The translations under genes were made by a program, and so were the position numbers. From a virus, in the IMG/VR virus record IMGVR_UViG_3300037264_003789, positions 1 to 43,339 of that record: DNA of 43,339 bases. One strand, written 5' to 3'. Shown piece by piece: positions 1,282 to 15,422 of this stretch. How positions within the stretch are numbered: position 1 is the first letter of the stretch; each line of letters begins with the position of its first letter. The notes beneath the pieces are model-generated. The model saw nothing but the letters and a program-made list of their open reading frames with translations, made no database searches and was not told the origin of the DNA.

Positions 1282-1302
1282 GAGCCCTCCAAAGGTGTGG
1301 TA

Positions 1303-2464: not shown

Positions 2465-2477
2465 ACTTTGGGGTGTG

Positions 2478-2929: not shown

Positions 2930-2951
2930 GGGGCTCCCTTGCGGGAGCCCC
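2930..2951 (-). terminator. Terminator-like hairpin after the 2971-3420 gene
   Basis: A 9-bp GC-rich stem (GGGGCTCCC with GGGAGCCCC) has a 4-nt loop and is followed on the minus strand by GCCTTTTAG. It lies 19 nt past the stop codon of the 149-residue zinc-binding protein, as expected of an intrinsic terminator with a short U-tract. Confidence 0.65.
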
Positions 2952-2970
2952 ACCAAGGGTTGAGGGTGTG

Positions 2971-3420
2971 TTACGACCCGGCCTCTTCGGTGACCGTCGC
3001 GTCCTCCTCGATCTCCTCACCCGCCTCGGGCGCGGGCGGCTGGACCTTGGCCTCGGCCTGCTTGGCCTTGAACGCCTCGAGCAGGGCCTTCTGGGCGTCC
3101 CGCGCCTGCTTGCGCTCGGCCTTCTTGTGCTCCTCGCAGACCCGGACCTGGAAGAGGTCGCTCGTGAAGACGTCGCGCTGCGTCGAGCAGCCGTCCATCG
3201 AGCACGTGATGGTGGCCTTCTGCTTGTTCGCGCTGGCGTCGAACCGCACCGTCCCCTTGATGACGTGCGGGTACTTCGCCTCCACCTCGCTGGGGCTGGT
3301 GCGCCGGGACTTGCCCTCGGTCTTGATCGCCGCCTTCAGCGCGGCCTGCTGCTTGGTGTCGAGGCCCATCGAGGCCATCACGGCATCGATGTCCTGACCC
3401 ACCTTGTCGAGGTCGCTCAT
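2971..3420 (-). CDS. Putative zinc-binding protein with coiled-coil and acidic tail
   Basis: This 149-residue protein begins MSDLDKVGQDIDAVMASMG. Its middle holds a likely metal site, TCSMDGCSTQRDVFTSDLF followed by VCEEH (Cys-x4-Cys...Cys-x2-His). A long Lys/Ala-rich helix (AERKQARDAQKALLEAF) follows, then an acidic Pro/Glu-rich tail. Similar short zinc-binding proteins with a VFTSDLFQV-like segment occur in phages, from memory and without an assigned role. AAGGAGCG precedes the start. Confidence 0.7.
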   Translation of the reverse strand: MSDLDKVGQDIDAVMASMGLDTKQQAALKAAIKTEGKSRRTSPSEVEAKYPHVIKGTVRFDASANKQKATITCSMDGCSTQRDVFTSDLFQVRVCEEHKKAERKQARDAQKALLEAFKAKQAEAKVQPPAPEAGEEIEEDATVTEEAGS

Positions 3421-3529
3421 GGAACGCTCCTTGAAACAGGGACCAAAAAACGAAAAGCCGCGACGGGCACAACCGCCGCGACAACGCACACAGCTCTCGC
3501 ACGACCACCCCACGACAGGCGGGGAGCGG

Positions 3530-3732
3530 GCGCAATAATGGCCGCTAACTCGCGGCCTCGGGGGGCGGCGAACGCGCCCCCTCCCGTACGACCAGCCAAG
3601 CAGGGCGACCGAGGCCGCGCCATAATACGCGCTAACCGCCCCCAGCCGCGACGAGCGCGGCGAGCGCGGCGAACGACTTCTGCACTCCTATTCCATCGCG
3701 GCGGCCCGTGCCGCGCTATCATATGACATAAC
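3530..3732 (-). repeat. Three degenerate 20-bp direct repeats, possible promoter or origin iterons
   Basis: Copies lie at 3530-3549, 3617-3636 and 3713-3732, spaced 87 and 96 nt. On the minus strand each reads GTTA, six variable bases, an ATTAT-like core, one base and GCGC; the third copy is the most diverged. Copies one and two also share a flanking ACGACCA. The ATTAT core resembles a -10 box facing the 2971-3420 gene, but no consensus -35 is apparent. Repeated regulator or initiator binding sites are equally possible. Confidence 0.55.
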
Positions 3733-3823
3733 TCCCGCTTCGTCTGGGCGCGAGGTATCAAGGTCCCCTCAGCGCTGGAATTATTCGGGGAAACCCCCCT
3801 TGGGGAGTTATCCTAGATACTAT

Positions 3824-3857
3824 GGGGGGAGGGGGGGAATAGTATGGGGGTAAGGGG
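3824..3857 (+). other. Potential G-quadruplex motif
   Basis: Four plus-strand G-runs of 6, 7, 5 and 4 are separated by loops of 1, 8 and 3 nt. The two halves share an imperfect [AG]TA[CG]TATGGGGG unit. It sits in the non-coding junction next to a GGGG/CCCC hairpin. Confidence 0.6.
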
Positions 3858-3917
3858 TCGGATCGCTCCTTCGTACGCGATATATTTCCGTGGTGACTTT
3901 TAGAATGTTGTGGGGGA

Positions 3918-4301
3918 CTAAATTTTAGGAGCCAGTGGCTTAGCCCCGCCGTAAGGGGTCCGCGGCATCGAGGGCGATCCTCGCCCGCTCGAAGCCCCAT
4001 CCTTCGACCGACAAGACCAACCATCACAACGAGTGGCATCATGTATTATGAATTCTTCTAATTGTTCAAAAAAATTAGTATTATATGGATATAATTTAAC
4101 CCATTCGCCGCTATAAACACCTTGTTCTGGAGCGTCTTCCCAATATAATACAAAATTGTCGTATATAATACCAACCCAAAACCCATTCATACTAATACGG
4201 CAATCACTATCATATTCATATACAGACGTTGCTATATTCTTGCTCTTAAAACTTTTGTTATCGGCTAGCCAAGCTGCGATAATATTAACAAGTGTCATCA
4301 T
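3918..4301 (-). CDS. Array paralogue P1, with GC-rich read-through tail
   Basis: The family core runs from MTLVNIIAAWLADN through FWVGIIYDNFVLYW to YNTNFFEQLEEFI (about residue 90). After IIHDAT the ORF continues about 37 residues rich in Gly, Ser, Pro and Arg that are encoded by GC-rich DNA unlike the rest of the gene. The true C-terminus was probably lost and replaced where the composition changes near 4030. Either of two adjacent ATGs could start it. Confidence 0.75.
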   Translation of the reverse strand: MMTLVNIIAAWLADNKSFKSKNIATSVYEYDSDCRISMNGFWVGIIYDNFVLYWEDAPEQGVYSGEWVKLYPYNTNFFEQLEEFIIHDATRCDGWSCRSKDGASSGRGSPSMPRTPYGGAKPLAPKI

Positions 4302-4323
4302 ATTTTAAATACAAATATAATCC

Positions 4324-4701
4324 ATGCGTCTTTCTAAACTATTCCTTGAATACGGCGGCCTCGAACGCGGCAGAATACATTTAGATGACGCACTAAATGC
4401 CGCAGGCACCGACGAAAAATCACTTATTGCCATTCAATGCCCCATAAGTGGATATTCAGCAAAAGCCTTCAACAACAGGAATATGCACTCCCAACTAATT
4501 CAAAAAGCCGTAAACGATGGGATTAGAGATGCATGGTATGCCGTTAGGGCTTATTGGGTGCCTCTGTCTGGGAGACTAATGGTCTACCAGATGGAAACAG
4601 CCACCGGGATGATAGTAGACCCACCAGATGATATCATTTCTAAGCTAGCAAATGCCTTGAACATCGATAAAGATATAATGCAGCTAGATATTATCGAGTA
4701 G
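4324..4701 (+). CDS. Hypothetical 125-residue protein, opposite strand to the array
   Basis: The protein begins MRLSKLFLEYGGLERG and ends in a helical acidic tail (ISKLANALNIDKDIMQLDIIE). It has no array motif. Segments such as FNNRNMHSQLIQKAVNDGIRDAW suggest a mixed alpha/beta fold. Only 22 nt separate its start from P1, so the promoters are divergent and overlapping. It converges with the YegP-like gene, with a 10-nt gap. The family is not recognised. Confidence 0.7.
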   Translation: MRLSKLFLEYGGLERGRIHLDDALNAAGTDEKSLIAIQCPISGYSAKAFNNRNMHSQLIQKAVNDGIRDAWYAVRAYWVPLSGRLMVYQMETATGMIVDPPDDIISKLANALNIDKDIMQLDIIE

Positions 4702-4711
4702 ACTATCTATA

Positions 4712-4909
4712 TTACACAACGTCTATCATGGTGGTAGTGGCGTGTTGCTTCATAGTGGCAATAGCCCTCATGACATTCGAGTGTGAGTCGAATGGTTCGG
4801 CACCAATAGCCACTATTTCACCGTTGTGGGCCCTTAGACGCCAATACCATCTTACATTCTTATTAAAGAATGACGTTTTGTAAAATATTTCAAACCTAGC
4901 AGTGTCCAT
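4712..4909 (-). CDS. YegP-like (DUF1508) small protein
   Basis: The 65-residue protein contains RFEIFYKT...WYWRLRAHNGEIVAIG followed by a helix (SNVMRAIATMKQHA). This matches the DUF1508/YegP fold (F-E-I-Y...W-R-W-R-L-K-A-x-N-G-E-I-I-A). The start MDTARFEIF is chosen because AGGAG precedes it and the domain begins at once. The family's role is unclear; YegP proteins are small and common in bacteria, and phages sometimes carry them. It overlaps P2 by 14 nt. Confidence 0.75.
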   Translation of the reverse strand: MDTARFEIFYKTSFFNKNVRWYWRLRAHNGEIVAIGAEPFDSHSNVMRAIATMKQHATTTMIDVV

Positions 4910-5225
4910 AATTGTTGCTCCTATTATCCTCAGATACATCATCATCCCACTTAGATGGGAACATTGCTATAACATTAAATGTGAATTCATCAATGCAGTG
5001 AGGATCAGTGGGTCTCCATGAATGTGACGTGTGTTTAGTGACTATACCAAATGAAGTTTCACGTACCCATATATATGGTAAATGCAAGTCAAGGATTACA
5101 GCTAATTCGTTTGGATGTGGCCTGATTGTAGCAACAGCTGTGTGTTCTATGAAATTCTCATGCCAATATACTTTTATACCTTCTTCTTCCAATATATGCT
5201 TAATAATGTCTAGTAGTTCAATCAT
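4896..5225 (-). CDS. Array paralogue P2 (divergent)
   Basis: The N-terminus MIELLDIIKHILEEEGIKVYW fits the family helix, with the invariant Trp replaced. The core has AVILDLHLPYIWV. The usual DPxFF motif is weakened to TDPHCIDEFTFNVIAMF, and an acidic Asn-rich tail follows. Membership rests on position, length and the N-terminal pattern. Its ATG directly follows the stop of P3, without a gap. Confidence 0.65.
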   Translation of the reverse strand: MIELLDIIKHILEEEGIKVYWHENFIEHTAVATIRPHPNELAVILDLHLPYIWVRETSFGIVTKHTSHSWRPTDPHCIDEFTFNVIAMFPSKWDDDVSEDNRSNNYGHC

Positions 5226-5474
5226 CTATTCATCTAGGTATTTCTTTAGCTTTTTGAATAGGTCTTTGTCTGTGGCGTGCAAGGTAGTGATGCCTGGGGC
5301 CTCACTGTCGTTGTTTCCTATTTGTATTTTGTCTGTTTGTATCATCATTCCGCATTTTGTATCATTATTGACCATTATGTATAGTAGTGAGAAGTCACCA
5401 CGATAGTCTTCAGTGGGCGTATATGTATAATGATTATCGTCTAACCATGTTGTCATTATGTCAGTGAGGGTCAC
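5226..5474 (-). CDS. Array paralogue P3 (GTG start)
   Basis: At 82 residues this is one of the shortest and clearest members: MTLTDIMTTWLDDNHYTY, core GMMIQTDKIQIG, and ATDKDLFKKLKKYLDE at the end. The start codon is GTG, which the family alignment fixes. It is probably a near-minimal version of the domain. Confidence 0.8.
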   Translation of the reverse strand: MTLTDIMTTWLDDNHYTYTPTEDYRGDFSLLYIMVNNDTKCGMMIQTDKIQIGNNDSEAPGITTLHATDKDLFKKLKKYLDE

Positions 5475-5488
5475 CAGTTTTAGATACG

Positions 5489-5758
5489 TTAAATTGGGAA
5501 GTCTAATTCGTTGATGTACGCTTCTAGTTTGTAGAAGAAGTCGGGGTCATATGGCTTAAACTCTTGTCGTAGTCGGAAGTACCCTAAGAAGTAGTCTTCC
5601 CAGTCATCGGACACCCAGACAACATTATTACACACAGCTATTCGCTTTCTAGAGCCGTTTATGCGGAAAACTTCACCTTCTGATATTGTACTTAATAATT
5701 CATATGTATAATGGTTTTCTGTGAGCCATGTTAAAACTATATCTGTAAGGGTTACCAC
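5489..5758 (-). CDS. Array paralogue P4 (GTG start)
   Basis: The 89 residues show both motifs plainly: MVTLTDIVLTWLTENHYTYE and YDPDFFYKLEAYINE. The core reads RIAVCNNVVWVSDDWEDYFLGYF. The N-terminal NHYTY is shared with P3, so P3 and P4 are probably a relatively recent duplicate pair. The start is GTG. Confidence 0.8.
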   Translation of the reverse strand: MVTLTDIVLTWLTENHYTYELLSTISEGEVFRINGSRKRIAVCNNVVWVSDDWEDYFLGYFRLRQEFKPYDPDFFYKLEAYINELDFPI

Positions 5759-5776
5759 TACCTTAGATTTGAGAGT

Positions 5777-6040
5777 TTAATAGATGTCATCAAAGAATAG
5801 GCTGTTGTTGATGTATCCGAAGAGCCACCTAGAGAACATTCTTTGAATTTTTTGGCACAACCCAGAGCACATGTGCACTTTAATTTTGTTTCCTTTGCGA
5901 AAACAACTGTCACATGGGAGGTAATGCCACCGCATTTTCTTTATTGCTTCGTCTTTTAAGAATGCTTTAATACAGCAGATAGGGATACCACTATGTAGAC
6001 CATATAAGATGTGGTAGACGGCTACACAATCTTGAAACAT
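5777..6040 (-). CDS. Cys-rich putative zinc-binding protein (GIPxCC type)
   Basis: The 87-residue protein has YGLHSGIPICCIKAF, then YLPCDSCFRKGNKIKVHMC. The CC pair, CxxC and later Cys could form a zinc site. Short phage proteins with G-I-P-x-C-C-I and Y-x-P-C-x-x-C in this order are known to me as hypotheticals without a role. It lacks the array motifs and is an insertion between P4 and P5. The start is supported by AGAGGAAAG upstream. Confidence 0.65.
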   Translation of the reverse strand: MFQDCVAVYHILYGLHSGIPICCIKAFLKDEAIKKMRWHYLPCDSCFRKGNKIKVHMCSGLCQKIQRMFSRWLFGYINNSLFFDDIY

Positions 6041-6111
6041 AGTGTCTTTCCTCTGTTAACACTTCTAGTTTCGCGAGAACGCGTGGATAGCCATGTTTAA
6101 GCGATACTTGA

Positions 6112-6205
6112 TATTTGGCTCTCTACGTGCTTCCTTAATTGCTCAAAATCCAAATGTGTATTTGGCTCTCTACGTGCTTCCTTAATTGCTCAAAATCCAA
6201 ATGTG
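6112..6205. repeat. Perfect 47-bp tandem duplication
   Basis: Positions 6112-6158 and 6159-6205 are identical. The unit is not a multiple of three, so it shifts frame at the 3' end of P5 and ends that protein with seven extra residues. Identity this perfect indicates a recent slippage or assembly event. Confidence 0.95.
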
Positions 6206-6500
6206 CCACAAAGAGTGCAGTTTCTAGTTTGCCGCGATGGAAGATTGGTGGGGTGAACCATATGAAGTCTGATCCGATATGTAGTGTTTCGTAATCTCCT
6301 ATTGTTATGCTATCACAGACATTAAACATGTTTATAGTGTTTGTGGGGACAACAATAGTTGGTTGGCCTTGATGGTGGCGATTTATGATGTACCTTTTGT
6401 GTTTTTTGAATGTGTCTTTTAGCCACTTAAGTATGATGTTTGTTAAAAGGTTTGTGGTCTTTCTTGTTGTGCTTGTTATAGATGGTAGTGATTTTGCCAT
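6135..6500 (-). CDS. Array paralogue P5, 3' end altered by tandem duplication
   Basis: A Ser/Thr-rich N-terminal extension of about 17 residues precedes LLTNIILKWLKDTFKKH. The core has ITIGDYETLHIGSDFIWF and the end motif is degenerate (AHLDFEQLRKHVESQI). The 47-bp duplication then adds HIWILSN before the stop. The first ATG is at 6500; a TTG six bases earlier overlaps the stop of P6. Confidence 0.7.
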   Translation of the reverse strand: MAKSLPSITSTTRKTTNLLTNIILKWLKDTFKKHKRYIINRHHQGQPTIVVPTNTINMFNVCDSITIGDYETLHIGSDFIWFTPPIFHRGKLETALFVAHLDFEQLRKHVESQIHIWILSN

Positions 6501-6502
6501 TT

Positions 6503-7036
6503 TCAACTCTCAAGCTGTCTGTGGCCGCCCTTCCCTACCCCAATGCTAATCATTTCTTTATCTATGTATGCTTCAATAATTTTCCAGTTTTCTGGGTCTG
6601 TTACATCATATGGTTGCCAGAAATTGTAAGTTGGAAGATGTCCTGGCTTGCTCATTCCTAAGTTCTCTGGTTCAGAAATAGCAATTGTGTTCTTGTATGG
6701 TTCCACTTTTAGTATAATGTGATGTCTCCCATTGAACTTGACGACTATTTCGGCACCGAAAGGAATTGTACTACTACTCATTACGCCACTTGAAATACTT
6801 GAGCCGGTTGTCATTAAACACCCAAGAACATCCCACCTATGATGTATGAAATCGATCATTAAGTCCATTAAACTTGGTGTCGTTGTTTTTGTATTTTTTG
6901 AACAACTGCACAAAGCTAGGTCGTAAGTATAGTAGGGACCGTTGTATTGTGTAACTATTCCTGGGGCACCTATTGGCCCATAAGGTCCGGGAGGGCACGG
7001 TCCTGGCCCGAGCGGCCCATTATTGATGGGTCCCAT
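6503..7036 (-). CDS. Array paralogue P6 with Gly/Pro-rich N-terminal head
   Basis: At 177 residues this is the longest member. Residues 1-30 are Gly/Pro-rich with collagen-like spacing (GPLGPGPCPPGPYGPIGAPG). The family domain follows: SLMDLMIDFIHHRWDV, core IILKVEPYKNTIAIS and end VTDPENWKIIEAYIDKEM. AAAGGAA lies before the ATG, one of the better ribosome sites in the array, and a 110-nt gap lies upstream, so a new transcript could begin here. Confidence 0.75.
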   Translation of the reverse strand: MGPINNGPLGPGPCPPGPYGPIGAPGIVTQYNGPYYTYDLALCSCSKNTKTTTPSLMDLMIDFIHHRWDVLGCLMTTGSSISSGVMSSSTIPFGAEIVVKFNGRHHIILKVEPYKNTIAISEPENLGMSKPGHLPTYNFWQPYDVTDPENWKIIEAYIDKEMISIGVGKGGHRQLES

Positions 7037-7146
7037 CTAGATTCCTTTCTTTGAAACTAAAAGTTTCCGCGTTGAGGTTCAGAATGTTGTGGTAAATTGA
7101 ATTCATATTTCCGGAAAACAATATAACGTTAAGCGCGCATGCGAAA
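7037..7146. other. Longest non-coding gap inside the array
   Basis: This 110-nt gap between P7 and P6 contains a small hairpin at 7053-7067 (GAAACT-AAA-AGTTTC) and the 12-mer AGAATGTTGTGG at 7081-7092 also found at 3902. The gap is a candidate promoter or processing site. No consensus promoter could be assigned with confidence. Confidence 0.4.
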
Positions 7147-7467
7147 TTATAGCAACTCCAAATATTTTTTTAATTTTTTAAAAAACTTAGGATCACTAGG
7201 TTCAATAATTATAGTATGATTATTTCCAATCACATCTGCGTGGTATTCAACGCATTCAACATAAGCTCTATCACGATTACTAACAACGCACACAAATCTT
7301 GTTGGTGGATTATACACCACTACATCTTTAGAAAGAGACATTGGTTTATTGCTTTTGCGAGAAATGTATGCTTCTGATCCATACTGACCATCATAAATTA
7401 AATCCCACTCATATATGTCCTTATCAAGCCAGTCTTCTATTAAATCAACTAATGTTACTTGTTTCAT
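7147..7467 (-). CDS. Array paralogue P7
   Basis: MKQVTLVDLIEDWLDKDIYEW at the N-terminus and SDPKFFKKLKKYLELL at the C-terminus are close to consensus. A longer, Val/Tyr-rich core (VVVYNPPTRFVCVVSN) lies between. The start overlaps the P8 stop as ATGA. P7 is the last gene before the 110-nt gap. Confidence 0.8.
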   Translation of the reverse strand: MKQVTLVDLIEDWLDKDIYEWDLIYDGQYGSEAYISRKSNKPMSLSKDVVVYNPPTRFVCVVSNRDRAYVECVEYHADVIGNNHTIIIEPSDPKFFKKLKKYLELL

Positions 7468-7853
7468 TTTTTATCAAAATAAGAATGTATAGCGGCTTCT
7501 AGATCTTCAAAAAAATTCTTGTTTCTACAATCTAATTTAGTAAATCCAATAAGGAATTTATCATTTACGTCTAAATTCGAAGTAGTTGCGCGATTGTTTT
7601 TATCTAGAAATACATTAATTTTAAAATTGTTCGGATTACATGGTTGACCAGATAATTCACGTTCCGTTATTAGCCGATTACTTATTATTAATACTTCATA
7701 TGGCGAAAGGCTGCCTTGCGTAGTTAGCTGTAAATTGCTATTATTAATATTTATTGCTATTGATTCTGTTGTTGTTGATGTTGTGACATAGAAATTTATT
7801 CCATTATCTTTAAGCCATGTCTGTATAATGTCTGTTAAGTTTGGTGTTTTCAT
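7464..7853 (-). CDS. Array paralogue P8
   Basis: The protein has 129 residues, longer than most. MKTPNLTDIIQTWLKDNGINF leads into a Ser/Thr/Asn-rich core with an apparent insertion around ERELSGQPCNPNNF. It ends with RNKNFFEDLEAAIHSYF, where Asp-Pro is replaced. Both ends overlap neighbours by 4 nt. Confidence 0.8.
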   Translation of the reverse strand: MKTPNLTDIIQTWLKDNGINFYVTTSTTTESIAININNSNLQLTTQGSLSPYEVLIISNRLITERELSGQPCNPNNFKINVFLDKNNRATTSNLDVNDKFLIGFTKLDCRNKNFFEDLEAAIHSYFDKK

Positions 7854-8122
7854 GTTACATCATCAAGTAATTTCATATTTCTTATATCAGATAAATATGA
7901 TCTGTGCTTTTCAAATGATTCATCTAAAAATGACACCAGTTTAACAGCAAAATCTACATCAAATGCTGACAACGTACCATTAAAGCTATAAATCTTATCT
8001 GTTCCAATTACACCAATCCAGATATTGTCACGATGAATTTGTGCTACTGTACTATTACTATTGATTGGTGTTATATTATACCGATCAGGAAGTAATGGTT
8101 TTATTAAGTCAGTAAGTGTCAT
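7850..8122 (-). CDS. Array paralogue P9
   Basis: MTLTDLIKPLLPDRYN shows the N-terminal motif with the Trp replaced by Leu. The core IWIGVIGTDKIYSFNG is a textbook example of the family hairpin. The C-terminal motif is FDVDFAVKLVSFLDE, followed by a charged helical tail of about 20 residues. It has 4-nt overlaps on both sides. Confidence 0.8.
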   Translation of the reverse strand: MTLTDLIKPLLPDRYNITPINSNSTVAQIHRDNIWIGVIGTDKIYSFNGTLSAFDVDFAVKLVSFLDESFEKHRSYLSDIRNMKLLDDVT

Positions 8123-8403
8123 ATTCTATGTGAAGACAACTTATTGTGGCCATTTATAATTATTTTCTGCATTTTACTAAACAATTCAATGTCACATAGG
8201 TTTATATCTTCATATAAATCTGTAACACGTATGTCATCAAAGAAACACACTGGCAGTTTTGAGGCATCGCACGATATACAAATCATATATGCTCTTTCAG
8301 ACATAGGAAATATGTAAAAATGTTTACATAAACCACTTTCTTGGAGCCACTCGTCAATTACTTTGTAGATGGTGACGGGGTCATTACTTGTCCCAGAGTC
8401 CAT
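8119..8403 (-). CDS. Array paralogue P10
   Basis: MDSGTSNDPVTIYKVIDEWLQESG carries the helix after a short polar leader. The core includes AYMICISC and LPVCFFDDIRV, and the end is LCDIELFSKMQKIIING. Its 5' end overlaps the preceding zinc-binding gene by 46 nt, the largest overlap inside the array. Confidence 0.75.
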   Translation of the reverse strand: MDSGTSNDPVTIYKVIDEWLQESGLCKHFYIFPMSERAYMICISCDASKLPVCFFDDIRVTDLYEDINLCDIELFSKMQKIIINGHNKLSSHRI

Positions 8404-8606
8404 ATTTGTCCAGACGCTCCAGCTAATTTATATCCGGCTTTAGTAGTACATGCACTATGCGCCACCTTTATTGTAAGTTCAATTGATTGTGTTGGATATT
8501 TGATCATTTTAACTATAATAAAACAACATTCTTCGTCTTTGTTAAGAACAGCATTGCACAAAGTACACGATTTTACGTCTTCATTTAATTCAAATTTAAA
8601 CGACAT
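8358..8606 (-). CDS. Putative zinc-binding 82-residue protein inside the array
   Basis: MSFKFELNEDVKSCTLCNAVLNK has a CxxC knuckle, followed by ECCF and a later HSACTT segment that could complete a metal site. It has no array helix or DPxFF motif. The last 15 codons overlap P10 in another frame, so the C-terminus may be variable. It overlaps P11 by 11 nt. Confidence 0.6.
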   Translation of the reverse strand: MSFKFELNEDVKSCTLCNAVLNKDEECCFIIVKMIKYPTQSIELTIKVAHSACTTKAGYKLAGASGQIWTLGQVMTPSPSTK

Positions 8607-8877
8607 CGGCTGGTCCTCCTCGCATCATTTCAAATACTGAGTCTAATGTGTTCTGTAGATGTATAAAAAAATCTGGGTCTGCCATTTTGAGTGTATATTT
8701 CTTTGATATTTTATAAATTACAATATAATCTTCATAAATTATTATATCAGCATCTCGCCATGTGTTCCTCTTTTGCGAAATAGTCATAATTATTGGTAGA
8801 TCTGTTCTTCCTGTGTCAGTTATTTTAACATTATATTCTTTACTTAAGAAATCAGTTAATACATCAACGGCAGTCAT
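8596..8877 (-). CDS. Array paralogue P11
   Basis: MTAVDVLTDFLSKEYNVKI has the helix pattern with Phe for Trp. The core is DADIIIYEDYIVIYKI and the end ADPDFFIHLQNTLDSVFE is near consensus. The start overlaps the P12 stop as ATGA. Confidence 0.8.
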   Translation of the reverse strand: MTAVDVLTDFLSKEYNVKITDTGRTDLPIIMTISQKRNTWRDADIIIYEDYIVIYKISKKYTLKMADPDFFIHLQNTLDSVFEMMRGGPADVV

Positions 8878-9251
8878 GTGGCGTAACCTCCATCAAAATA
8901 GATTTCTTCAAGTAGCATTTCACTTTCTTCTTCATTAACTTCTTTAATCCATTCGTCTCTATAATTAATGGACATATCTAACCATGTTTTAAATATATCA
9001 AACATCTTTGGGTCTTCCATAGACAAATATTTACCATGTGTTCTATTATATAAACAACCCTTAATTTCGAACCTAAGAAAACTATTATATATTGTTCCAT
9101 GATGAAACCCAAAGATGCGAATTTGAATTTCATCGTCGTCTTCTGAAGAACCAAAATTATAAAACGTTATGTCACTTTTTGTGGCACAAGGTGGACATTC
9201 ATATTCTTCTTGAATCCACTTTTTGGCCAAATTTGGAAATGTAAGTTTCAT
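8874..9251 (-). CDS. Array paralogue P12 with long acidic tail
   Basis: MKLTFPNLAKKWIQEEYECP is a variant helix. The core contains an acidic SSEDDDEIQIRIFGF stretch and the motif is EDPKMFDIFKTWLDM. It then continues about 28 residues rich in Glu (EEESEMLLEEIYF), giving a very acidic C-terminus unlike its neighbours. Confidence 0.75.
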   Translation of the reverse strand: MKLTFPNLAKKWIQEEYECPPCATKSDITFYNFGSSEDDDEIQIRIFGFHHGTIYNSFLRFEIKGCLYNRTHGKYLSMEDPKMFDIFKTWLDMSINYRDEWIKEVNEEESEMLLEEIYFDGGYAT

Positions 9252-9485
9252 TTATGAAAGCCTAAAATGCCCATTGCCCATGTCTTCTATGTTGGCATAA
9301 GTAGTTATAAATGCTTTTGGATTATGTGGAAGTTCCGGTTTATATTCTGTCGTACATTTAACATCTATGTCGATTGTTTTAGCTTTTATACAGGCCCTAG
9401 AAGTGTGTATTGTCCATGGTGAACCTTTAATACCCTTTTTCATTTCGAACTTGTTTACATGGATCCTGCACTTGAGACGGCGCAT
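9252..9485 (-). CDS. Hypothetical basic 77-residue protein in the array
   Basis: MRRLKCRIHVNKFEMKKGIKG is basic and the rest looks beta-rich (IDIDVKCTTEYKPELPH). AAAGGA lies upstream of the ATG at 9485, which supports it despite a 59-nt overlap with P13; a later ATG at 9443 is the alternative. It shows no array motifs and could be an unrelated insertion. Its stop abuts the ATG of P12. Confidence 0.55.
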   Translation of the reverse strand: MRRLKCRIHVNKFEMKKGIKGSPWTIHTSRACIKAKTIDIDVKCTTEYKPELPHNPKAFITTYANIEDMGNGHFRLS

Positions 9486-9732
9486 AAATATATTCCTTTA
9501 ATTTAATAAACAAATCTGGATCATATGCTTGTATCACAGTTGACGCGTTTGCGCTCCATTGGCCATTATTCTGTAATAAAATAAAGTCAGGTCCAACACA
9601 AAAAGTTTGTTTCATTTCGTGTATTACAACAAGCAAATATGGTAAGCCAGCATGTGGGTAATATGCAGCATATAATATGTTATTATCACTTAACCAATCT
9701 TGTAATAAAGTTTGAAAATTTATTTCCGACAT
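9427..9732 (-). CDS. Array paralogue P13
   Basis: MSEINFQTLLQDWLSDNNILY shows the helix, the core contains TFCVGPDFILLQNNG and the end is YDPDLFIKLKEYIYAP, near consensus. The ATG at 9732 is preferred over a TTG two codons earlier. Some 17 residues beyond the motif overlap the next gene. Confidence 0.8.
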   Translation of the reverse strand: MSEINFQTLLQDWLSDNNILYAAYYPHAGLPYLLVVIHEMKQTFCVGPDFILLQNNGQWSANASTVIQAYDPDLFIKLKEYIYAPSQVQDPCKQVRNEKGY

Positions 9733-9980
9733 TTCCAATTATTAATATACTTTTTAATATTTATAAAGAATTTCGGATCTTCCGGCATGAGTCGTATACA
9801 AAATCCATCAACATCCATAAAAAGCGTTTCACCATGCATAAAGCCAATTAATTGGTTGTGTTTAATGCTCCTTATAAAAAAACAATCACTTGAGGCATAA
9901 TCTATAGTAAATGGCACACGAAACTTATGGCTTAAAAGCCAATCATTTACTATCCTAGATAAAATTATTTCTCTAGACAT
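9720..9980 (-). CDS. Array paralogue P14
   Basis: The compact 86-residue member runs MSREIILSRIVNDWLLSHKF, core LIGFMHGETLFMDVDGF and end EDPKFFINIKKYINNW. All three family blocks are intact. It overlaps P13 by 13 nt and P15 by 16 nt. Confidence 0.8.
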   Translation of the reverse strand: MSREIILSRIVNDWLLSHKFRVPFTIDYASSDCFFIRSIKHNQLIGFMHGETLFMDVDGFCIRLMPEDPKFFINIKKYINNWKCRK

Positions 9981-10348
9981 TTGATATCACGTTTTGTCTT
10001 ATATGATCGCCTAATGAATAAAGAATTTGCATCAGGCGATTTAATTATGCGTTTCAATAAGCGCCCCATTTTACTAAAAAACTTTGTGTCGTGTGCGTAA
10101 ATGTTTGAATATTTATCACGCCATGCTGATACACAATTAGATTCAATGAATGCTACCAAATAGACATCATATGATATTACTGTCTTAACAGCACATACGT
10201 TTACATCGACTATTGCTTCTTTCTTCCGTTTTTTAAGGTACATGATTTGGTCGTGCACCCATATACCATTTTTGTGTTTTGTACAGATATAAAAATCACG
10301 ATATTGTCGTGTTTGTAGCCATTTTGTGATTAAATGAGTAAGTGTCAT
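9965..10348 (-). CDS. Array paralogue P15 with basic tail
   Basis: MTLTHLITKWLQTRQYRDF begins the protein. The core holds a basic YLKKRKKEAIVDV and ISYDVYLVAFI. The end motif is AHDTKFFSKMGRLLKRII, followed by a basic tail of about 25 residues (SYKTKRDIKCLEK). The net basic character contrasts with acidic P12 and suggests different partners for different paralogues (inference). Confidence 0.75.
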   Translation of the reverse strand: MTLTHLITKWLQTRQYRDFYICTKHKNGIWVHDQIMYLKKRKKEAIVDVNVCAVKTVISYDVYLVAFIESNCVSAWRDKYSNIYAHDTKFFSKMGRLLKRIIKSPDANSLFIRRSYKTKRDIKCLEK

Positions 10349-10659
10349 TTAAAATATCTCGTGCTTAATTTTGTTAGAATTTCGTCTAATTCATTGAAGA
10401 AAGTGTGTGATGTTGCATTAAGTGGTTTTAGTGTTGGTCCACATGACTTCGGCCAATCATATGGATCAAATAAGTTATTCCACCAAATTAAGTCATTGTC
10501 TCTTATAAATGCAATGAAGTGTTGCTGAGTGTGATGAAATGCGATTATATTAGGTTTAAACATCAAAACAGGATATTGAAAAACACTGTTACTTACTATA
10601 AAGAAACCATCAAATCCTTTATAGGCTAACCAGTAATTTATAATGTCTGTAAATGTCAT
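10345..10659 (-). CDS. Array paralogue P16
   Basis: MTFTDIINYWLAYKGFDGFF is near consensus. The core is aromatic-rich (FIAFIRDNDLIWWNNLF), with a Pro-rich loop before SHTFFNELDEILTKL, in which Asp-Pro is lost. It has 4-nt overlaps with P15 and P17. Confidence 0.8.
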   Translation of the reverse strand: MTFTDIINYWLAYKGFDGFFIVSNSVFQYPVLMFKPNIIAFHHTQQHFIAFIRDNDLIWWNNLFDPYDWPKSCGPTLKPLNATSHTFFNELDEILTKLSTRYFK

Positions 10660-10964
10660 AAACTAGACGTCGCATTGACTAACACTTTATATAACTCATC
10701 AAAAAAATTTTGATCAAGTGCGCTTATAGTTATTGACTCACTATCCATTGAATGGTACGGGTGAATTACGACCACATAACTTTTGTATACATGGATAATA
10801 ACGTAGTGTTTAATCCATATCGAACCGATCATCGAATCTTTATCGCCACCAATGTGTCCAATATTTGTAGATGCATAATTCCAATCAATGCGATCATCAA
10901 ATTCTAACCAATATTTAATTATTTCAAATAAATCAGGAATACTTGGCCGCCTTGGTGTAGACAT
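10656..10964 (-). CDS. Array paralogue P17
   Basis: A short basic/proline leader (MSTPRRPSIP) precedes DLFEIIKYWLEFDDRIDW. The core is IGSIWIKHYVIIHVYKSYVVVI and the end ALDQNFFDELYKVLVNA. It follows P18 with a 17-nt gap, so it may have its own ribosome site. Confidence 0.8.
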   Translation of the reverse strand: MSTPRRPSIPDLFEIIKYWLEFDDRIDWNYASTNIGHIGGDKDSMIGSIWIKHYVIIHVYKSYVVVIHPYHSMDSESITISALDQNFFDELYKVLVNATSSL

Positions 10965-10981
10965 CTAAAGTACTTTAGACT

Positions 10982-11329
10982 TTAGAATGGTAGTTCGTAA
11001 ACTGAAGCGTGATGTTTGTTTGATTTTCTAATATGTGAAGTTATACTTCTAATTGATTGTAACATGATATCATTTGTAAATGATGGGTCTGCAGAATCAT
11101 ATTTTATAAATTTATTACTATATTCATTCCATAAGTATACTTCATTATTAACTATAAATGCTAATATGCCAATAATTAGTAAATTTGGCATACGATTGTG
11201 ATATGAAAAAGATATAACGCATGCTGGTGCTCCATTTTCGCACCTATGTCCAATAATACAATCTACTACATTATTTGATACTTTTTTGTCTGTTTTTAGC
11301 CAGTGCTCTATTATTTCGCACAATTTCAT
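10982..11329 (-). CDS. Array paralogue P18
   Basis: MKLCEIIEHWLKTDKKV starts the protein. The core is hydrophobic (LLIIGILAFIVNNEVYLW) and the motif is ADPSFTNDIMLQSIRS, with the second Phe lost. A polar tail (RKSNKHHASVYELPF) follows. It overlaps P19 by ATGA. Confidence 0.8.
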   Translation of the reverse strand: MKLCEIIEHWLKTDKKVSNNVVDCIIGHRCENGAPACVISFSYHNRMPNLLIIGILAFIVNNEVYLWNEYSNKFIKYDSADPSFTNDIMLQSIRSITSHIRKSNKHHASVYELPF

Positions 11330-11622
11330 TGATGCCTTCTACGTTTACCAGAATAATGTCTAGCTGCAGCCTTAATCATAAAATACTTCAATTTATCAAA
11401 AAACTTAGGGTCACTAACCATTAATTTGCTAGATATATCCTTAAATTCAGTCGTTGGAGTAACACAATTGTTAGTTATAGTTGCTAATAACACTTCATCA
11501 TTTGATATAATATATGATCTAAATGGCCATTCTAAATATGCCTCACTCGGTATAGACCACACCCAGTAATCATGAAAATTCTCTGCTAACCATTTGTCGA
11601 TGATTTCTTCAAATGATATCAT
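11326..11622 (-). CDS. Array paralogue P19
   Basis: MISFEEIIDKWLAENFHDYW opens the protein. Core strands are SYIISNDEVLLATI and the end is SDPKFFDKLKYFMIKAAAR, followed by a strongly basic tip (GKRRRHQ). ATGA overlaps occur on both sides. Confidence 0.8.
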   Translation of the reverse strand: MISFEEIIDKWLAENFHDYWVWSIPSEAYLEWPFRSYIISNDEVLLATITNNCVTPTTEFKDISSKLMVSDPKFFDKLKYFMIKAAARHYSGKRRRHQ

Positions 11623-11897
11623 ATATGATAACGACTATTGTGGTCGCTCAATATATTCCACAACTTATTTAAAAATTCTGGGTCTGTTGCATATAATGCA
11701 GTACTAGACGATGAAAAAGGAACAATATGGTCACCAAAAATCGCAATAACATAGTCATCGCCAGCTGTCATTGGCCATGTATGATCACGACAAACAATAT
11801 AATTACAAATAGTTGGTATTGACCGATATCTGCTTACTTGCCATCCTGCCGCATTGCGTGATTTTAGCCATGCTTCAATAAGGTCAGTTAGTGACAT
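11619..11897 (-). CDS. Array paralogue P20
   Basis: MSLTDLIEAWLKSRNAAGW is close to consensus. The core is YVIAIFGDHIVPFSSS and the end is TDPEFLNKLWNILSDH. At 92 residues with little extra sequence it is close to the minimal domain. The P21 stop lies 12 nt upstream. Confidence 0.8.
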   Translation of the reverse strand: MSLTDLIEAWLKSRNAAGWQVSRYRSIPTICNYIVCRDHTWPMTAGDDYVIAIFGDHIVPFSSSSTALYATDPEFLNKLWNILSDHNSRYHI

Positions 11898-11909
11898 CTA
11901 ACTGTATAT

Positions 11910-12245
11910 TTAGATCTGACGATATTTTTTGATTTTCTTTTTGCGTGACGAAATTTTTTGGCACTGGTGTGTCAATAATATTTCTAATTTACTAAAGAAA
12001 TTAGGATCAGCTAGGTATGCATAGCTTTTTTCTACTTCGCCGTTGACACGAACCCAAAGATACGCACCAGTGCTATCTAATCGTATCCTACAAATACCAC
12101 CTAAATGATTTTTAATGCAATCAAAAATTGCAATACTTCCGATAATGTGTGATAATTTATAATGACTCTGCAACTTAGCTTCTTTGAACCATAGTCTTAC
12201 AATGCCAATAACTTCTGATAGTTCATTGTCGTTCATTTTTGACAT
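11910..12245 (-). CDS. Array paralogue P21 with basic tail
   Basis: MSKMNDNELSEVIGIVRLWFKEAK carries an offset helix with the Trp kept. The core includes GSIAIFDCI and GAYLWVRVNG. ADPNFFSKLEILLTHQ is consensus, and the protein ends SSRKKKIKKYRQI, highly basic. It overlaps P22 by 13 nt. Confidence 0.8.
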   Translation of the reverse strand: MSKMNDNELSEVIGIVRLWFKEAKLQSHYKLSHIIGSIAIFDCIKNHLGGICRIRLDSTGAYLWVRVNGEVEKSYAYLADPNFFSKLEILLTHQCQKISSRKKKIKKYRQI

Positions 12246-12535
12246 AAATGCTCATCACATGTTGTACTTAATATGTTATGCACATGAAACATGTACGACT
12301 TAATTTTATAGACAGAAAAAGGGTGATTTATGTTGATTAATTCGTTATTCGCGATCTGTTGCATAACAACAGTTTCAGTATTTACCCTGCACACTAAAAC
12401 CTCGACAGGTATAAATCTGTTTTTAGGGACAAAGTTGCATTTACAATAAACATAAGCATCCATAACACCAAAATGCTTTGATATAATTGGATCGTTTTTA
12501 ATCCACGTTTCAATCATGTTTAATAGGGTTATCAT
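12233..12535 (-). CDS. Array paralogue P22 (degenerate C-terminus)
   Basis: MITLLNMIETWIKNDPIISKHFG has the helix. The core contains DAYVYCKCNF and VEVLVCRVNTETVV, and the end motif is weak (HPFSVYKIKSYMFHVHNIL). The ATG at 12535 aligns with the family; a TTG three codons earlier is the alternative. It overlaps P23 by 26 nt. Confidence 0.7.
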   Translation of the reverse strand: MITLLNMIETWIKNDPIISKHFGVMDAYVYCKCNFVPKNRFIPVEVLVCRVNTETVVMQQIANNELININHPFSVYKIKSYMFHVHNILSTTCDEHLCQK

Positions 12536-12893
12536 TCGGATCAACCAAATAGCTATTTGTTATTGTTTCTCCACACCATCCTACACTATTATGCATTTTT
12601 CTAATGACTGCTCGCAATAACGTAAAGAAACTTGGCATCGTACAACTTAATTGGGCACCAGACAAATAAGATTGGGCACCAGACAAATAAGCATCTTTAT
12701 CATAATTCTGATACAAAGAGACATGAGATACGTTTATGAAAGCATATACTCTACCAGACATTGGCAACCTAATGATCCCATCATTTCTACATATTTCCAT
12801 GATGTAGTCACCATCTATTTTTACGTGTTTCGATAAACAATCGTCATCTTTAATCCAGTCGTCAATTAGTGTTCTTAAATCAACTTCTTTCAT
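12510..12893 (-). CDS. Array paralogue P23 with seven-residue internal duplication
   Basis: MKEVDLRTLIDDWIKDDDCLSK starts the protein and RVYAFINVSHVSLYQN is the core. YLSGAQS then repeats as YLSGAQL, encoded by a perfect 21-bp tandem duplication, just before the variant motif MPSFFTLLRAVIRKM. The loop before the last helix therefore tolerates length change. A 25-residue polar tail follows. Confidence 0.8.
   Translation of the reverse strand: MKEVDLRTLIDDWIKDDDCLSKHVKIDGDYIMEICRNDGIIRLPMSGRVYAFINVSHVSLYQNYDKDAYLSGAQSYLSGAQLSCTMPSFFTLLRAVIRKMHNSVGWCGETITNSYLVDPNDNPIKHD
12650..12691. repeat. Perfect 21-bp in-frame tandem duplication
   Basis: Positions 12650-12670 and 12671-12691 are identical (unit ATTGGGCACCAGACAAATAAG). 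On the minus strand the duplication adds exactly seven codons to P23 and keeps the frame. Confidence 0.95.
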
Positions 12894-13209
12894 TTGGCAT
12901 CACTCCAAATTCGATTGCCAAGTGTGGTGTTAGAAATTTATAAATTTTTTTAAAAAAATCTGGTCTTCTAGCATCCAATAATACAGGATCCTTTACATCA
13001 TCAAATGCCATTGCATAATGATCGTACGTTAACATTAATAACATCATCTTCGTTTTTTTGTCATCGACAATAGCAATTTTTTGAATTTTTGTGTTGCTCC
13101 AGCCACTATCTATTTCGTCGTTGTATGAATATACATAATTATTTTTTAGGTCGTAATTTGATTTAATCCATAATGTGATTAAAACCGCTAAACTTAATTT
13201 ATCCGCCAT
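12880..13209 (-). CDS. Array paralogue P24
   Basis: MADKLSLAVLITLWIKSNYDLK has the helix. The core has MMLLMLTYDHYAMAF and the end is RRPDFFKKIYKFLTPHL, with Asp before Pro changed to Arg. It overlaps P23 by 14 nt and the zinc-finger gene by 11 nt. Confidence 0.8.
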   Translation of the reverse strand: MADKLSLAVLITLWIKSNYDLKNNYVYSYNDEIDSGWSNTKIQKIAIVDDKKTKMMLLMLTYDHYAMAFDDVKDPVLLDARRPDFFKKIYKFLTPHLAIEFGVMPNERS

Positions 13210-13498
13210 TAAGTTTATCTTTTATTCGTTGTTGTGATTTACGTTGAAACTTGCGTTTAAGCTTTATATCTTCTTTGTGTTCTACGTTATGCAATCGTAA
13301 TTTCTCTTTAGCCTCTTCTGACATCGGTCGATGAATACCGAATGCTTTTCTAATTAATTTATCAACTAGAGAGTCTTCGCCATTTTTCCTTGCTACAGCT
13401 ATTTGGGCCCATATTTCGTTTTTGCAATGGGACTTAACGTGAGCTAAAAGCTCAGCAACTCTCTTTGTAGAAAATTTTTTACATTGTGCGCACATCAT
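13199..13498 (-). CDS. C2H2 zinc finger plus NUMOD3-like segment, possible homing-endonuclease remnant
   Basis: Residues 3-24 form a C2H2-type finger, CAQC then HVKSH (Cys-x2-Cys-x13-His-x3-His). Residues about 69-82 read FGIHRPMSEEAKEKLRLHN, which resembles the NUMOD3 DNA-binding motif of homing endonucleases (G-x-x-H-S-E-E-T-K-x-K-I). A very basic helix follows to the end. No GIY-YIG or HNH catalytic block is present in 99 residues. It may be a relic, or a stand-alone DNA-binding protein. It lies between P24 and P25. Confidence 0.65.
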   Translation of the reverse strand: MMCAQCKKFSTKRVAELLAHVKSHCKNEIWAQIAVARKNGEDSLVDKLIRKAFGIHRPMSEEAKEKLRLHNVEHKEDIKLKRKFQRKSQQRIKDKLNGG

Positions 13499-13507
13499 AA
13501 TTAATTT

Positions 13508-13759
13508 TTAAATACCTACATTGTATTGAGCCGCATTCTTTATTGCATACTCAAGCTTACTAAAAAATTCGGGATCAGCTGCTTCAATTACATTTCCTGG
13601 ATGTATTACAACCCAACTCTCACCTATGATACCAATGTTACGATCAATTGGTGTCCTATATGTATACTTTATTGTAATCCAAATGCTATCATGGTGTATT
13701 GAAATTTTACTATATTTTGTTGTACCGAGCCATGCCGCTATCATTTTAGTTAGATTCAC
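13508..13759 (-). CDS. Array paralogue P25 (GTG start)
   Basis: At 83 residues this is a minimal, near-consensus member: MNLTKMIAAWLGTTKYSKI, core NIGIIGESWVVIHPGNV and ADPEFFSKLEYAIKNAA. The GTG start is fixed by alignment of the N-terminal motif with the other members. Confidence 0.85.
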   Translation of the reverse strand: MNLTKMIAAWLGTTKYSKISIHHDSIWITIKYTYRTPIDRNIGIIGESWVVIHPGNVIEAADPEFFSKLEYAIKNAAQYNVGI

Positions 13760-13766
13760 ATAATAT

Positions 13767-14060
13767 TTACCAAAGCGATTGAAAATCGGGTAAATCAGTC
13801 CAACTTCCTGGTAATCTCATGCTTGGTTTCCATGATCCATTAGAAAACTCAGTAATTGCAATACTTAATTTTTCAAACATCAAAGGATCAGCAGCATATA
13901 TTATTTGTCTGCCGCCATCTAAAAATATTGCGTCATCGCTTATCCGACCTATGAAAAGACAATTAAACCATATTGCCGCTAACCCACTTTCACTATGGGT
14001 CACAATTATACGGCCATCTGTTTTGCCCCAATTATCGATTATCTGCCATAGTGTTACCAT
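13767..14060 (-). CDS. Array paralogue P26
   Basis: The start MVTLWQIIDNWGKTDGRI is chosen by family alignment; the ORF is open 21 codons further, inside P27. The core LFIGRISDDAIFLDGG and ADPLMFEKLSIAITEF are consensus. About 20 residues rich in Trp and Pro form the tail. It overlaps P27 by 29 nt. Confidence 0.8.
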   Translation of the reverse strand: MVTLWQIIDNWGKTDGRIIVTHSESGLAAIWFNCLFIGRISDDAIFLDGGRQIIYAADPLMFEKLSIAITEFSNGSWKPSMRLPGSWTDLPDFQSLW

Positions 14061-14325
14061 TGTTTGTGTCAATTTCTTCAACGCACCTATTAATGCCTGC
14101 CAATAGCTTATTCCAAAATGCATGGTCCATAATGCTTATGGTGTAATATTCTGTATTTGGTGGCATTACTTCAACTTCTTTGTCTCTAATTGCAATGATG
14201 AAAATAGAGCCATATGTAATATATGCAATGTGCATATATGCTGAAATTGTTACTCTAATGCCACTATGTGGTAATAAGTGTTTAAAATCTATGAGCCAAC
14301 TATCGATGATATGCCATAATTCCAT
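14032..14325 (-). CDS. Array paralogue P27
   Basis: MELWHIIDSWLIDFKHLLP shares x-L-W-x-I-I-D-x-W with adjacent P26, so the two are probably a recent duplicate pair. The core is GSIFIIAIRDKEVEVM and the end motif is varied (MDHAFWNKLLAGINRC). Confidence 0.8.
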   Translation of the reverse strand: MELWHIIDSWLIDFKHLLPHSGIRVTISAYMHIAYITYGSIFIIAIRDKEVEVMPPNTEYYTISIMDHAFWNKLLAGINRCVEEIDTNNGNTMADNR

Positions 14326-14350
14326 CTAAAGTATATTCGCAGCGACATAC

Positions 14351-14668
14351 TCATGGCCATATCTGCTGACGTGGTTTTTTGGGATTTGTTTTAGCTTGAT
14401 GCCAAGCATATTGATTGAAATACTTACGAACTAAATACTGATCTAACTTTTCAAAAAATTCTGGATCTGCTGCGCTAATATGTCCAACTTTGTTATCATA
14501 TATTGACACAAATGGGTTATTCATATACGATAAAGCATCCTTGTCTTGTGGCCACCATTTTGGTTGAATACGATTACCACCACTAGAATTGGCTGATTTG
14601 ACTTCTAATACATTCCAGTGATTTGTCTCTAACCAATCCTTAACTAATTCCAATAGTGACACTGTCAT
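14351..14668 (-). CDS. Array paralogue P28 (first in transcription order)
   Basis: MTVSLLELVKDWLETNHWN opens the protein, the core has NPFVSIYDNKVGHIS, and AADPEFFEKLDQYLVRKYF is among the best matches to the C-terminal consensus. A basic tail (KTNPKKPRQQIW) follows. Its 5' end overlaps the Thg1-like gene by 29 nt, tying the array to that gene's transcript. Confidence 0.85.
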   Translation of the reverse strand: MTVSLLELVKDWLETNHWNVLEVKSANSSGGNRIQPKWWPQDKDALSYMNNPFVSIYDNKVGHISAADPEFFEKLDQYLVRKYFNQYAWHQAKTNPKKPRQQIWP

Positions 14669-15422
14669 TTGATGATTGTCCTAATACATCTAATATGAGT
14701 TTAGAATATTCATTTTTAGTTGGTAATTGTTCGTCAGTTTTTATTTGCCTACGCATAACCTTTACAGTTTTGTTCGTTAAAGGATTGAAACCATCTTTTA
14801 CATAGTGTTCCCAATACATACCAGTTCCATATTTCTGCCAAGATGGTATGCCATGGAAGCTAATTGAATTCTCAGTAAGAATCTGTAATTTCTCTTCTAT
14901 CGTTTTTTTGTTGAGAGCCGATGTTGCACGGCCCTGACTTAGCCCATTAGAACGTAACGTCCAATATGTCAAGCCATTTAATGAACACCTCTCAGCGTCA
15001 GATTGACGCCACCTAAAATAATCAGTAACTTTAGATGGTGAAGTACCAACCCAGATACGGCTATCAAAGTGCCCCAAAATACCGGATATCATACTAAATT
15101 TAGCACTTGCTATGCCAGCCGAAACAGACACTAGTTTTTCAACTTCTCTATCGAATAAGTTAAAATCATCATTTAATAATATAGAAATTTCATCACTTTC
15201 AGTATAGGCATAAATACCACCTAATTCAACTAACAAAGTTTTTGAAACATCTATCATGATATTATGCATATCAATATCGAATGGCTTAGAAAAATGCTTT
15301 TCAGTAAGCGCAGAGAAACTTCTGCCGTCAACTCTAATGACTGAATATAAATTATCCATTACGCGTATTGAATGATATAATTCATACTTGCGCATTTCTT
15401 GTTCGAAAAGATCATTATTCAT
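14640..15422 (-). CDS. Thg1-like protein (tRNA-His guanylyltransferase family, 3'-5' polymerase)
   Basis: The 260-residue protein carries the Thg1 palm signatures: VIRVDGRSFSALTEKHFSKPFD (residues 28-49, metal ligand D32) and AYTESDEISILL (residues 72-83, D77/E78). NGLSQGRATSALNKK around residues 154-168 matches the family's later conserved block. Thg1 adds G-1 to tRNA-His; bacterial and phage Thg1-like proteins more often repair 5'-truncated tRNAs by 3'-5' addition (family knowledge). Length is close to the yeast enzyme. No tRNA gene is visible. It heads the minus-strand paralogue array. Confidence 0.88.
   Translation of the reverse strand: MNNDLFEQEMRKYELYHSIRVMDNLYSVIRVDGRSFSALTEKHFSKPFDIDMHNIMIDVSKTLLVELGGIYAYTESDEISILLNDDFNLFDREVEKLVSVSAGIASAKFSMISGILGHFDSRIWVGTSPSKVTDYFRWRQSDAERCSLNGLTYWTLRSNGLSQGRATSALNKKTIEEKLQILTENSISFHGIPSWQKYGTGMYWEHYVKDGFNPLTNKTVKVMRRQIKTDEQLPTKNEYSKLILDVLGQSSNDSVTIGIS

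What the first reader, a model, noticed from the sequence alone, without database searches (positions are those of the whole stretch)
3918..14668. Large array of 28 diverged paralogues of an unrecognised small-protein family
Seen: 28 consecutive-to-near-consecutive minus-strand genes share an N-terminal M-x-L-x-D-I-I-x-x-W-L helix, a beta-rich core with I-G-x-[IV]-x-x-D-x-[IV], and a C-terminal A-D-P-x-F-F-x-K-L-x-x-Y-I. Cores and tails differ widely (acidic in P12, basic in P15/P21, Gly/Pro head in P6). More than 10 kb of a phage genome devoted to one fold suggests diversifying use, for example a repertoire against varied host targets. That function is inference. I do not recognise the family.
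Basis: partly seen in the sequence, partly recalled or inferred. Interest (0 to 1): 0.92.

Follow-up and report, generated by a model that had tools for sequence, protein, structure and literature searches.

The report
Phage array of 28 related small proteins
A quarter of this fragment of a large bacteria-infecting virus is a run of 28 small genes that descend from one ancestor and match no known protein family or fold; related viruses carry similar runs with largely different members, so it looks like a fast-changing toolkit for handling the host, though no member has a proven job.

Summary
The 28 minus-strand ORFs at 3918-14668 are real paralogues: leave-one-out profile tests recover 27 (P6 is borderline). 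Profiles built from them find unseen members in eight other viral contigs, about 130 proteins in all. Two of these contigs have the same gene order, with a thg1-adjacent array of 21 and of at least 31 members; the others carry about 3-11 more scattered copies.

No member matches Pfam, PHROGs, NCBIfam or PADLOC convincingly. Two paralogues give confident, similar models (pLDDT 90-91, alpha - 4/5 beta - alpha) without a Foldseek relative in PDB (or, for one, BFVD). Only core and helix-cap positions are conserved, which suggests a scaffold rather than an enzyme family.

The array turns over faster than the rest of the genome: 7 of 28 members have an orthologue in the nearest phage, against nearly all core genes. 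Orthologues that remain are under purifying selection. The genes mostly overlap, like an operon that begins with the tRNA-repair gene thg1.

Best reading: a co-expressed repertoire of host-takeover or counter-defence binding proteins on one scaffold. Family, layout and turnover are shown; the function is inferred. Precedents: 12 AcrID1 homologues in SIRV2, about 35 zinc ribbons in phage G.

The parts
14640..15422 (-). thg1 (tRNA-His guanylyltransferase), first gene before the array, conserved in all three array phages
   Evidence: Pfam Thg1 E=6e-28; 64% identical orthologue in L004; same place in G004
14351..14668 (-). array member P28
   Evidence: leave-one-out E=3e-10; 48% orthologue L004:10755-11039
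14032..14325 (-). array member P27
   Evidence: leave-one-out E=3e-6
13767..14060 (-). array member P26 (start at 14060 preferred over 14123)
   Evidence: leave-one-out E=2e-6
13508..13759 (-). array member P25, a typical one; AF2 model pLDDT 90.2, alpha-beta5-alpha
   Evidence: 46% orthologue in L004
13199..13498 (-). not a member: small Cys/His protein near the thg1 end of the array in three phages
   Evidence: no convincing Pfam hit
12880..13209 (-). array member P24
   Evidence: leave-one-out E=5e-5
12510..12893 (-). array member P23, with a 21-nt in-frame tandem duplication
   Evidence: leave-one-out E=3e-7; 32% orthologue
12233..12544 (-). array member P22
   Evidence: leave-one-out E=1e-5
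11910..12245 (-). array member P21 (basic tail)
   Evidence: leave-one-out E=7e-6; 40% orthologue
11619..11897 (-). array member P20
   Evidence: leave-one-out E=3e-11; 54% orthologue
11326..11622 (-). array member P19; AF2 model pLDDT 91.3, pTM 0.80, alpha-beta4-alpha
   Evidence: 49% orthologue
10982..11329 (-). array member P18
   Evidence: leave-one-out E=7e-9
10656..10964 (-). array member P17
   Evidence: leave-one-out E=2e-9
10345..10659 (-). array member P16
   Evidence: leave-one-out E=2e-7
9965..10348 (-). array member P15 (basic)
   Evidence: leave-one-out E=4e-14
9720..9980 (-). array member P14
   Evidence: leave-one-out E=2e-5
9427..9738 (-). array member P13
   Evidence: leave-one-out E=2e-7
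8874..9251 (-). array member P12 (acidic)
   Evidence: leave-one-out E=6e-4, 4e-4
8596..8877 (-). array member P11
   Evidence: leave-one-out E=2e-6
8119..8403 (-). array member P10
   Evidence: leave-one-out E=2e-5
7850..8122 (-). array member P9
   Evidence: leave-one-out E=6e-6
7464..7853 (-). array member P8
   Evidence: leave-one-out E=5e-9
7147..7467 (-). array member P7, last gene of the first unit, after the 110-nt gap that precedes it in coordinates
   Evidence: leave-one-out E=3e-11; gaps
6503..7036 (-). array member P6, with a Gly/Pro-rich N-terminal head; borderline member
   Evidence: leave-one-out E=0.14, 0.034
6135..6506 (-). array member P5, C-terminus altered by a 47-nt exact tandem duplication
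   Evidence: leave-one-out E=3e-5, 6e-5
5489..5758 (-). array member P4
   Evidence: leave-one-out E=2e-13; 18 N-terminal aa 72% identical to P3
5226..5474 (-). array member P3
   Evidence: leave-one-out E=1e-11; 39% orthologue L004:18010-18321
4896..5225 (-). array member P2
   Evidence: leave-one-out E=0.16 with window members, 3e-4 with the enlarged family
4712..4945 (-). not a member: DUF1508 gene inside the array
   Evidence: Pfam E=8e-11; 41% orthologue beside the array in G001
3918..4301 (-). array member P1; C-terminal part reads into GC-rich DNA
   Evidence: leave-one-out E=1e-14; sequence

Best explanation
The array is a multigene family of small (mostly 80-130 aa), non-enzymatic scaffold proteins (N-terminal helix, four or five beta strands, C-terminal helix) in a lineage of large contractile-tailed phages. 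It works as a co-expressed repertoire. Transcription from upstream of thg1, and in a second unit from upstream of P6, would give polycistronic mRNAs whose overlapping genes are translated together. Each paralogue keeps the fold and uses its own variable surface to bind a different host target, most likely a defence component or a host regulator that must be inhibited. New members arise by local tandem duplication and are lost or replaced quickly at the thg1-distal end, while several proximal members are retained. Shown: family, predicted fold, operon-like layout, turnover, purifying selection on orthologues. Inferred: non-enzymatic binding, early expression, host or defence targets.
For: Homology: 22 unseen members in a second phage, 123 in eight contigs (window included) after iteration with decoys at E>=0.067, and more in a further contig, G012. 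Fold: two confident models with the same topology. Scaffold, not enzyme: the most conserved columns are W10, L3, I7, I45, V50, P69, F71, F72, L75 and L79 plus the helix-capping D68; no other polar residue exceeds 61% (K74). Operon: from thg1 to P7 (8.3 kb) no gap exceeds 25 nt and many genes overlap by exactly 4 nt. Turnover: 7 of 28 have an orthologue in G001, whereas 40 of 42 non-array genes from 14640 onwards do; orthologues cluster at the thg1 end (p=0.0017) and neighbours in G004 are more alike than random (p=0.0002). Selection: pN 0.28-0.48 against pS 0.69-0.85. Context: thg1 is discussed among RNA-repair genes of jumbo phages in PMC7824862. Precedent: 12 AcrID1-homologue genes in the archaeal virus SIRV2, ascribed to duplication and possible functional diversification (PMC11065993).
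Against: No functional data for any member and no match to a characterised inhibitor. Early expression is assumed from position only; the promoter scan was no better than shuffled sequence. In relatives (G006, G007, G008, G012) single members lie close to or downstream of structural genes, which would also fit a virion or late role. Purifying selection on orthologues is not the pattern of an arms race at those members. The host is unknown, so no target can be named.
Confidence: 0.5

Rival explanations
1. The proteins are virion components (internal, ejected or decoration proteins) that diversify like the internal-head proteins of other large phages.
For: In G007 three members sit directly upstream of tail genes, and in G008 and G012 members follow the head module. 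Some are basic (pI>8 in 7 of 28).
Against: The big array lies beside thg1, on the same strand as the replication genes and away from structural genes. pI ranges from 4.5 to 9.9 and no common leader or cleavage motif was seen in the alignment.
Confidence: 0.17
2. The proteins are antitoxin- or immunity-like: each neutralises one toxin, either of host toxin-antitoxin abortive systems or of competing phages.
For: Small alpha/beta proteins with variable surfaces in tandem would fit a poly-immunity locus. One weak BFVD match is named antitoxin (prob 0.47, E 0.46) and one member has a weak Pfam Tsi6 hit (E 0.007).
Against: Both hits are single, weak and inconsistent. No toxin genes were seen paired with members.
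Confidence: 0.15
3. The members are subunits that assemble with one another into hetero-oligomers, so co-translation in set ratios rather than target diversity explains the array.
For: Overlapping genes and uniform strand; a conserved fold with variable surfaces.
Against: Member number and content differ strongly between close phages (28, 21, at least 31; only 2-7 orthologues per pair), and relatives have isolated single copies.
Confidence: 0.08
4. A selfish or near-neutral tandem expansion with no specific role for most copies.
For: Rapid gain and loss, tandem duplications.
Against: All 28 frames are open, fold positions are kept (W10 87%), and surviving orthologues have pN/pS of 0.34-0.58 even with pS saturated.
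Confidence: 0.1

Closest known systems
AcrID1 homologues of rudiviruses such as SIRV2 (PMC11065993)
   Same: 12 diverged paralogues of a small protein in one virus genome, close together among small accessory genes, with duplication and functional diversification proposed
   Different: Archaeal virus, mostly single genes of which many have their own early promoter, a known anti-CRISPR member; here a contractile-tailed phage, overlapping operon, no Pfam or PHROG match and no known activity
Zinc-ribbon expansion of Bacillus phage G, about 35 copies (PMC7824862)
   Same: Lineage-specific expansion of one small protein in a large phage, of similar size
   Different: Zinc ribbons proposed to be transcription factors or DNA-binding proteins; the present family has no conserved cysteine pairs
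Mll2253 (PDB 3q63), the only solved-structure lead
   Same: Weak profile similarity to a helix LIEEWL and the C-terminal PQFFEKL helix (E=0.0027)
   Different: Best single stretch only E 0.016; Foldseek did not list it; no related Pfam hit for members
Bacterial polyimmunity loci of polymorphic toxin systems (from general knowledge)
   Same: Tandem arrays of diverged small immunity proteins of one superfamily
   Different: No toxin partners seen here; no match to an immunity family beyond one weak Tsi6 hit

Membership tests
AcrID1 family | Sequence homology to AcrID1 | tested here: inconclusive
   No Pfam or PHROG family shared by members; AcrID1 itself was not compared directly
AcrID1 family | Inhibition of type I-D CRISPR-Cas | not testable with these tools
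   Needs an assay
AcrID1 family | Conserved early promoter before many of the genes | tested here: not met
   From thg1 to P7 no intergenic gap exceeds 25 nt; promoter scan 57 found against 63.6 expected
Phage G zinc-ribbon expansion | Conserved CxxC pairs | tested here: not met
   Cys reaches at most 13% in any listed column
AHSA1/SRPBCC (helix-grip) proteins | Recognised by a Pfam profile of the clan | tested here: not met
   No such hit among 99 members at E<=0.01
AHSA1/SRPBCC (helix-grip) proteins | Helix-grip fold | tested here: inconclusive
   Models are alpha-beta4/5-alpha; Foldseek PDB finds nothing at E<=0.001, TM-scores about 0.35 or less
Known defence-associated families (PADLOC) | Profile match shared by members | tested here: not met
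   Only two single weak hits among 99 members
Enzyme family | Conserved set of catalytic polar residues | tested here: not met
   Conserved positions are hydrophobic or helix-capping
The new family described here | N-terminal helix with W, D-x-V turn and strand, DPxFFxKL C-terminal helix | tested here: met
   27 of 28 window proteins significant when left out; P6 borderline

The most novel reading that the evidence does not exclude
A previously undescribed fold family that a lineage of large phages uses as a general-purpose binding scaffold: dozens of paralogues per genome, each specialised for a different host protein, renewed by tandem duplication. It would be a phage counterpart of a diversified binding-protein repertoire.
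Probability: 0.25. Interest if true: 0.85.

Novelty: new variant of a known kind. Interest (0 to 1): 0.62.

Why it matters
If the members are host-takeover or counter-defence proteins, one operon offers about 28 independent starting points for finding new inhibitors, and about 130 relatives give an alignment for searching phages whose accessory genes are otherwise unannotated. It also adds a large case to the few documented lineage-specific expansions in phages, with measured turnover and selection, so the question of why phages keep dozens of copies of one small fold becomes testable.

Tried and rejected
The 28-row alignment had no stretch conserved enough for a degenerate collection scan. 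Scans with Thg1, DnaB, one member and a neighbouring protein found only G001 or nothing. The metallophosphoesterase-like protein found two contigs without the family. A C-terminal DNA pattern (A-D-P-x-F-F-x-K-L) then worked on viral contigs. Closest phages by terminase (LR756508, LR756511, Flavobacterium immuto, Microcystis Mel-JY01) lack the family. Assembly chimera was considered because GC jumps at about 3.9 kb, and rejected: the junction is conserved in G001 (80% over 126 nt). Promoter and terminator scans were uninformative. Several literature searches for phage paralogue arrays gave nothing useful. Weak similarity of 15480-15839 (+) to the family (E 0.02-0.11) was not accepted as membership.
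Full report
WHAT IS THERE. The window is a 43.3 kb IMG/VR virus contig. A profile of the 28 finds 22 unseen proteins in a second phage, G001 (IMGVR_UViG_3300037264_004862, 122.8 kb). Leave-one-out supports 26 of 28 with window sequences alone and 27 with the enlarged family; P6 is borderline.

SURROUNDINGS. The window is syntenic with G001 over nearly its whole length. The array starts right after thg1 (Pfam E 6e-28). From thg1 to P7, 8.3 kb, no gap exceeds 25 nt and overlaps of 4 nt are common; a 110-nt gap precedes P6. A DUF1508 gene and a small Cys/His protein sit inside the array and have orthologues at comparable places in relatives. G001 encodes a tail sheath and baseplate proteins, so these phages have contractile tails.

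DISTRIBUTION. A degenerate pattern for the C-terminal motif found further viral contigs. G004 (3300048058_000008) has the same gene order and at least 31 members up to its end; G006, G007, G008, G009, G012 and, more weakly, the 408 kb G005 carry about 3-11 scattered copies. G006, G008 and G012 share a 95% identical protein, so they belong to one lineage. After iteration 123 members stand in eight contigs, window included, with decoys at E>=0.067. Four phages close by terminase have none.

FOLD AND CONSERVATION. AlphaFold2 models of P19 (pLDDT 91.3, pTM 0.80) and P25 (90.2, 0.79) agree: helix, four or five strands, helix. Foldseek finds no match at E<=0.001 in PDB for either, or in BFVD for P19. 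A weak profile hit to Mll2253 (3q63, E 0.0027) aligns both terminal helices but is not backed by Pfam or Foldseek. Conserved columns are hydrophobic core and helix cap, which argues for a scaffold without a shared active site (inference).

EVOLUTION. Between window and G001, 40 of the 42 non-array genes compared from thg1 onwards have orthologues (40-81% identity), but only 7 of 28 array genes do (32-54%). Six of those seven lie in the third of the array nearest thg1 (p=0.0017), and in G004 neighbours resemble each other more than chance allows (p=0.0002), as expected from tandem duplication; this neighbour signal is absent in the window and G001. Within the window paralogues are roughly 20-30% identical while orthologues are roughly 50%, so most paralogues are older than the split of these phages. 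Orthologues show pN 0.28-0.48 with saturated pS 0.69-0.85; core genes have median pN 0.25. The retained members are therefore kept by purifying selection, evolve faster than the core, and the array turns over by gain and loss.

HOW IT MOST LIKELY WORKS. A co-expressed set of small binding proteins on one scaffold, each for its own host target, most likely to switch off defences or host functions early in infection. The layout, turnover and lack of catalytic residues fit; the association with thg1, discussed among the RNA-repair genes of jumbo phages (PMC7824862), fits weakly. AcrID1 homologues of SIRV2 (12 genes, PMC11065993) show that such expansions can contain anti-defence proteins. Against it stand missing functional data, unproven early expression, and members near structural genes in relatives. 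I give this 0.5. The rivals are virion proteins, antitoxin-like proteins, hetero-oligomer subunits, and a near-neutral expansion.

NOVELTY. The family appears undescribed in the libraries searched. Lineage-specific expansions in phages are known (phage G zinc ribbons, about 35 copies), so I file it as a new variant of a known kind. The limits are that collection scans used one short pattern, cellular genomes were sampled poorly, and no AlphaFold DB search was possible.

Noticed in passing
window 1-3900; L010 (G001 1-15000): GC-rich left arm (55-62% GC against 32-39% elsewhere) with small genes and a repeated CGTACCACACC...GGAGG element before several of them; also present in G001, where one 67-aa protein (1303-1506) is 100% identical although other genes are about 60% identical. 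Suggests recent exchange or strong constraint.
   Followed up: partly
window 6112-6205: Exact 47-nt tandem duplication that changes the C-terminus of P5, a sign of recent slippage or recombination in the array.
   Followed up: no
window 12650-12691: Exact 21-nt in-frame tandem duplication (SYLSGAQ twice) inside P23.
   Followed up: no
window 5226-5758: P3 and P4 share 13 of 18 N-terminal residues and 73% DNA identity over 56 nt, but diverge afterwards: local duplication or N-terminal exchange.
   Followed up: no
window 15480-15839 (+); L004:9611-9967; L061:6396-6731: Opposite-strand gene conserved in three phages with an ADPNF-type tail; only weakly like the family (E 0.02-0.11). Possibly a very remote member.
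   Followed up: partly
window 13199-13498; L004:11349-11669; L061:8949-9305: Small Cys/His protein with, in two of them, an HPMSxEAKEKLRxHN segment, kept near the thg1 end of the array in three phages; function unknown, possibly a regulator.
   Followed up: partly
L004 16796-17712: GC-rich segment inserted in the middle of the G001 array, encoding a 247-aa protein unrelated to the family.
   Followed up: no
G005 51739-52482, 307254-308048: In the 408 kb contig the domain appears as part of longer proteins (about 247 and 264 aa) with extra regions.
   Followed up: no
window 17594-19220: Two neighbouring plus-strand genes look by eye like trypsin-type serine proteases (GGDSGS and GHSGGP motifs); not tested with profiles.
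   Followed up: no
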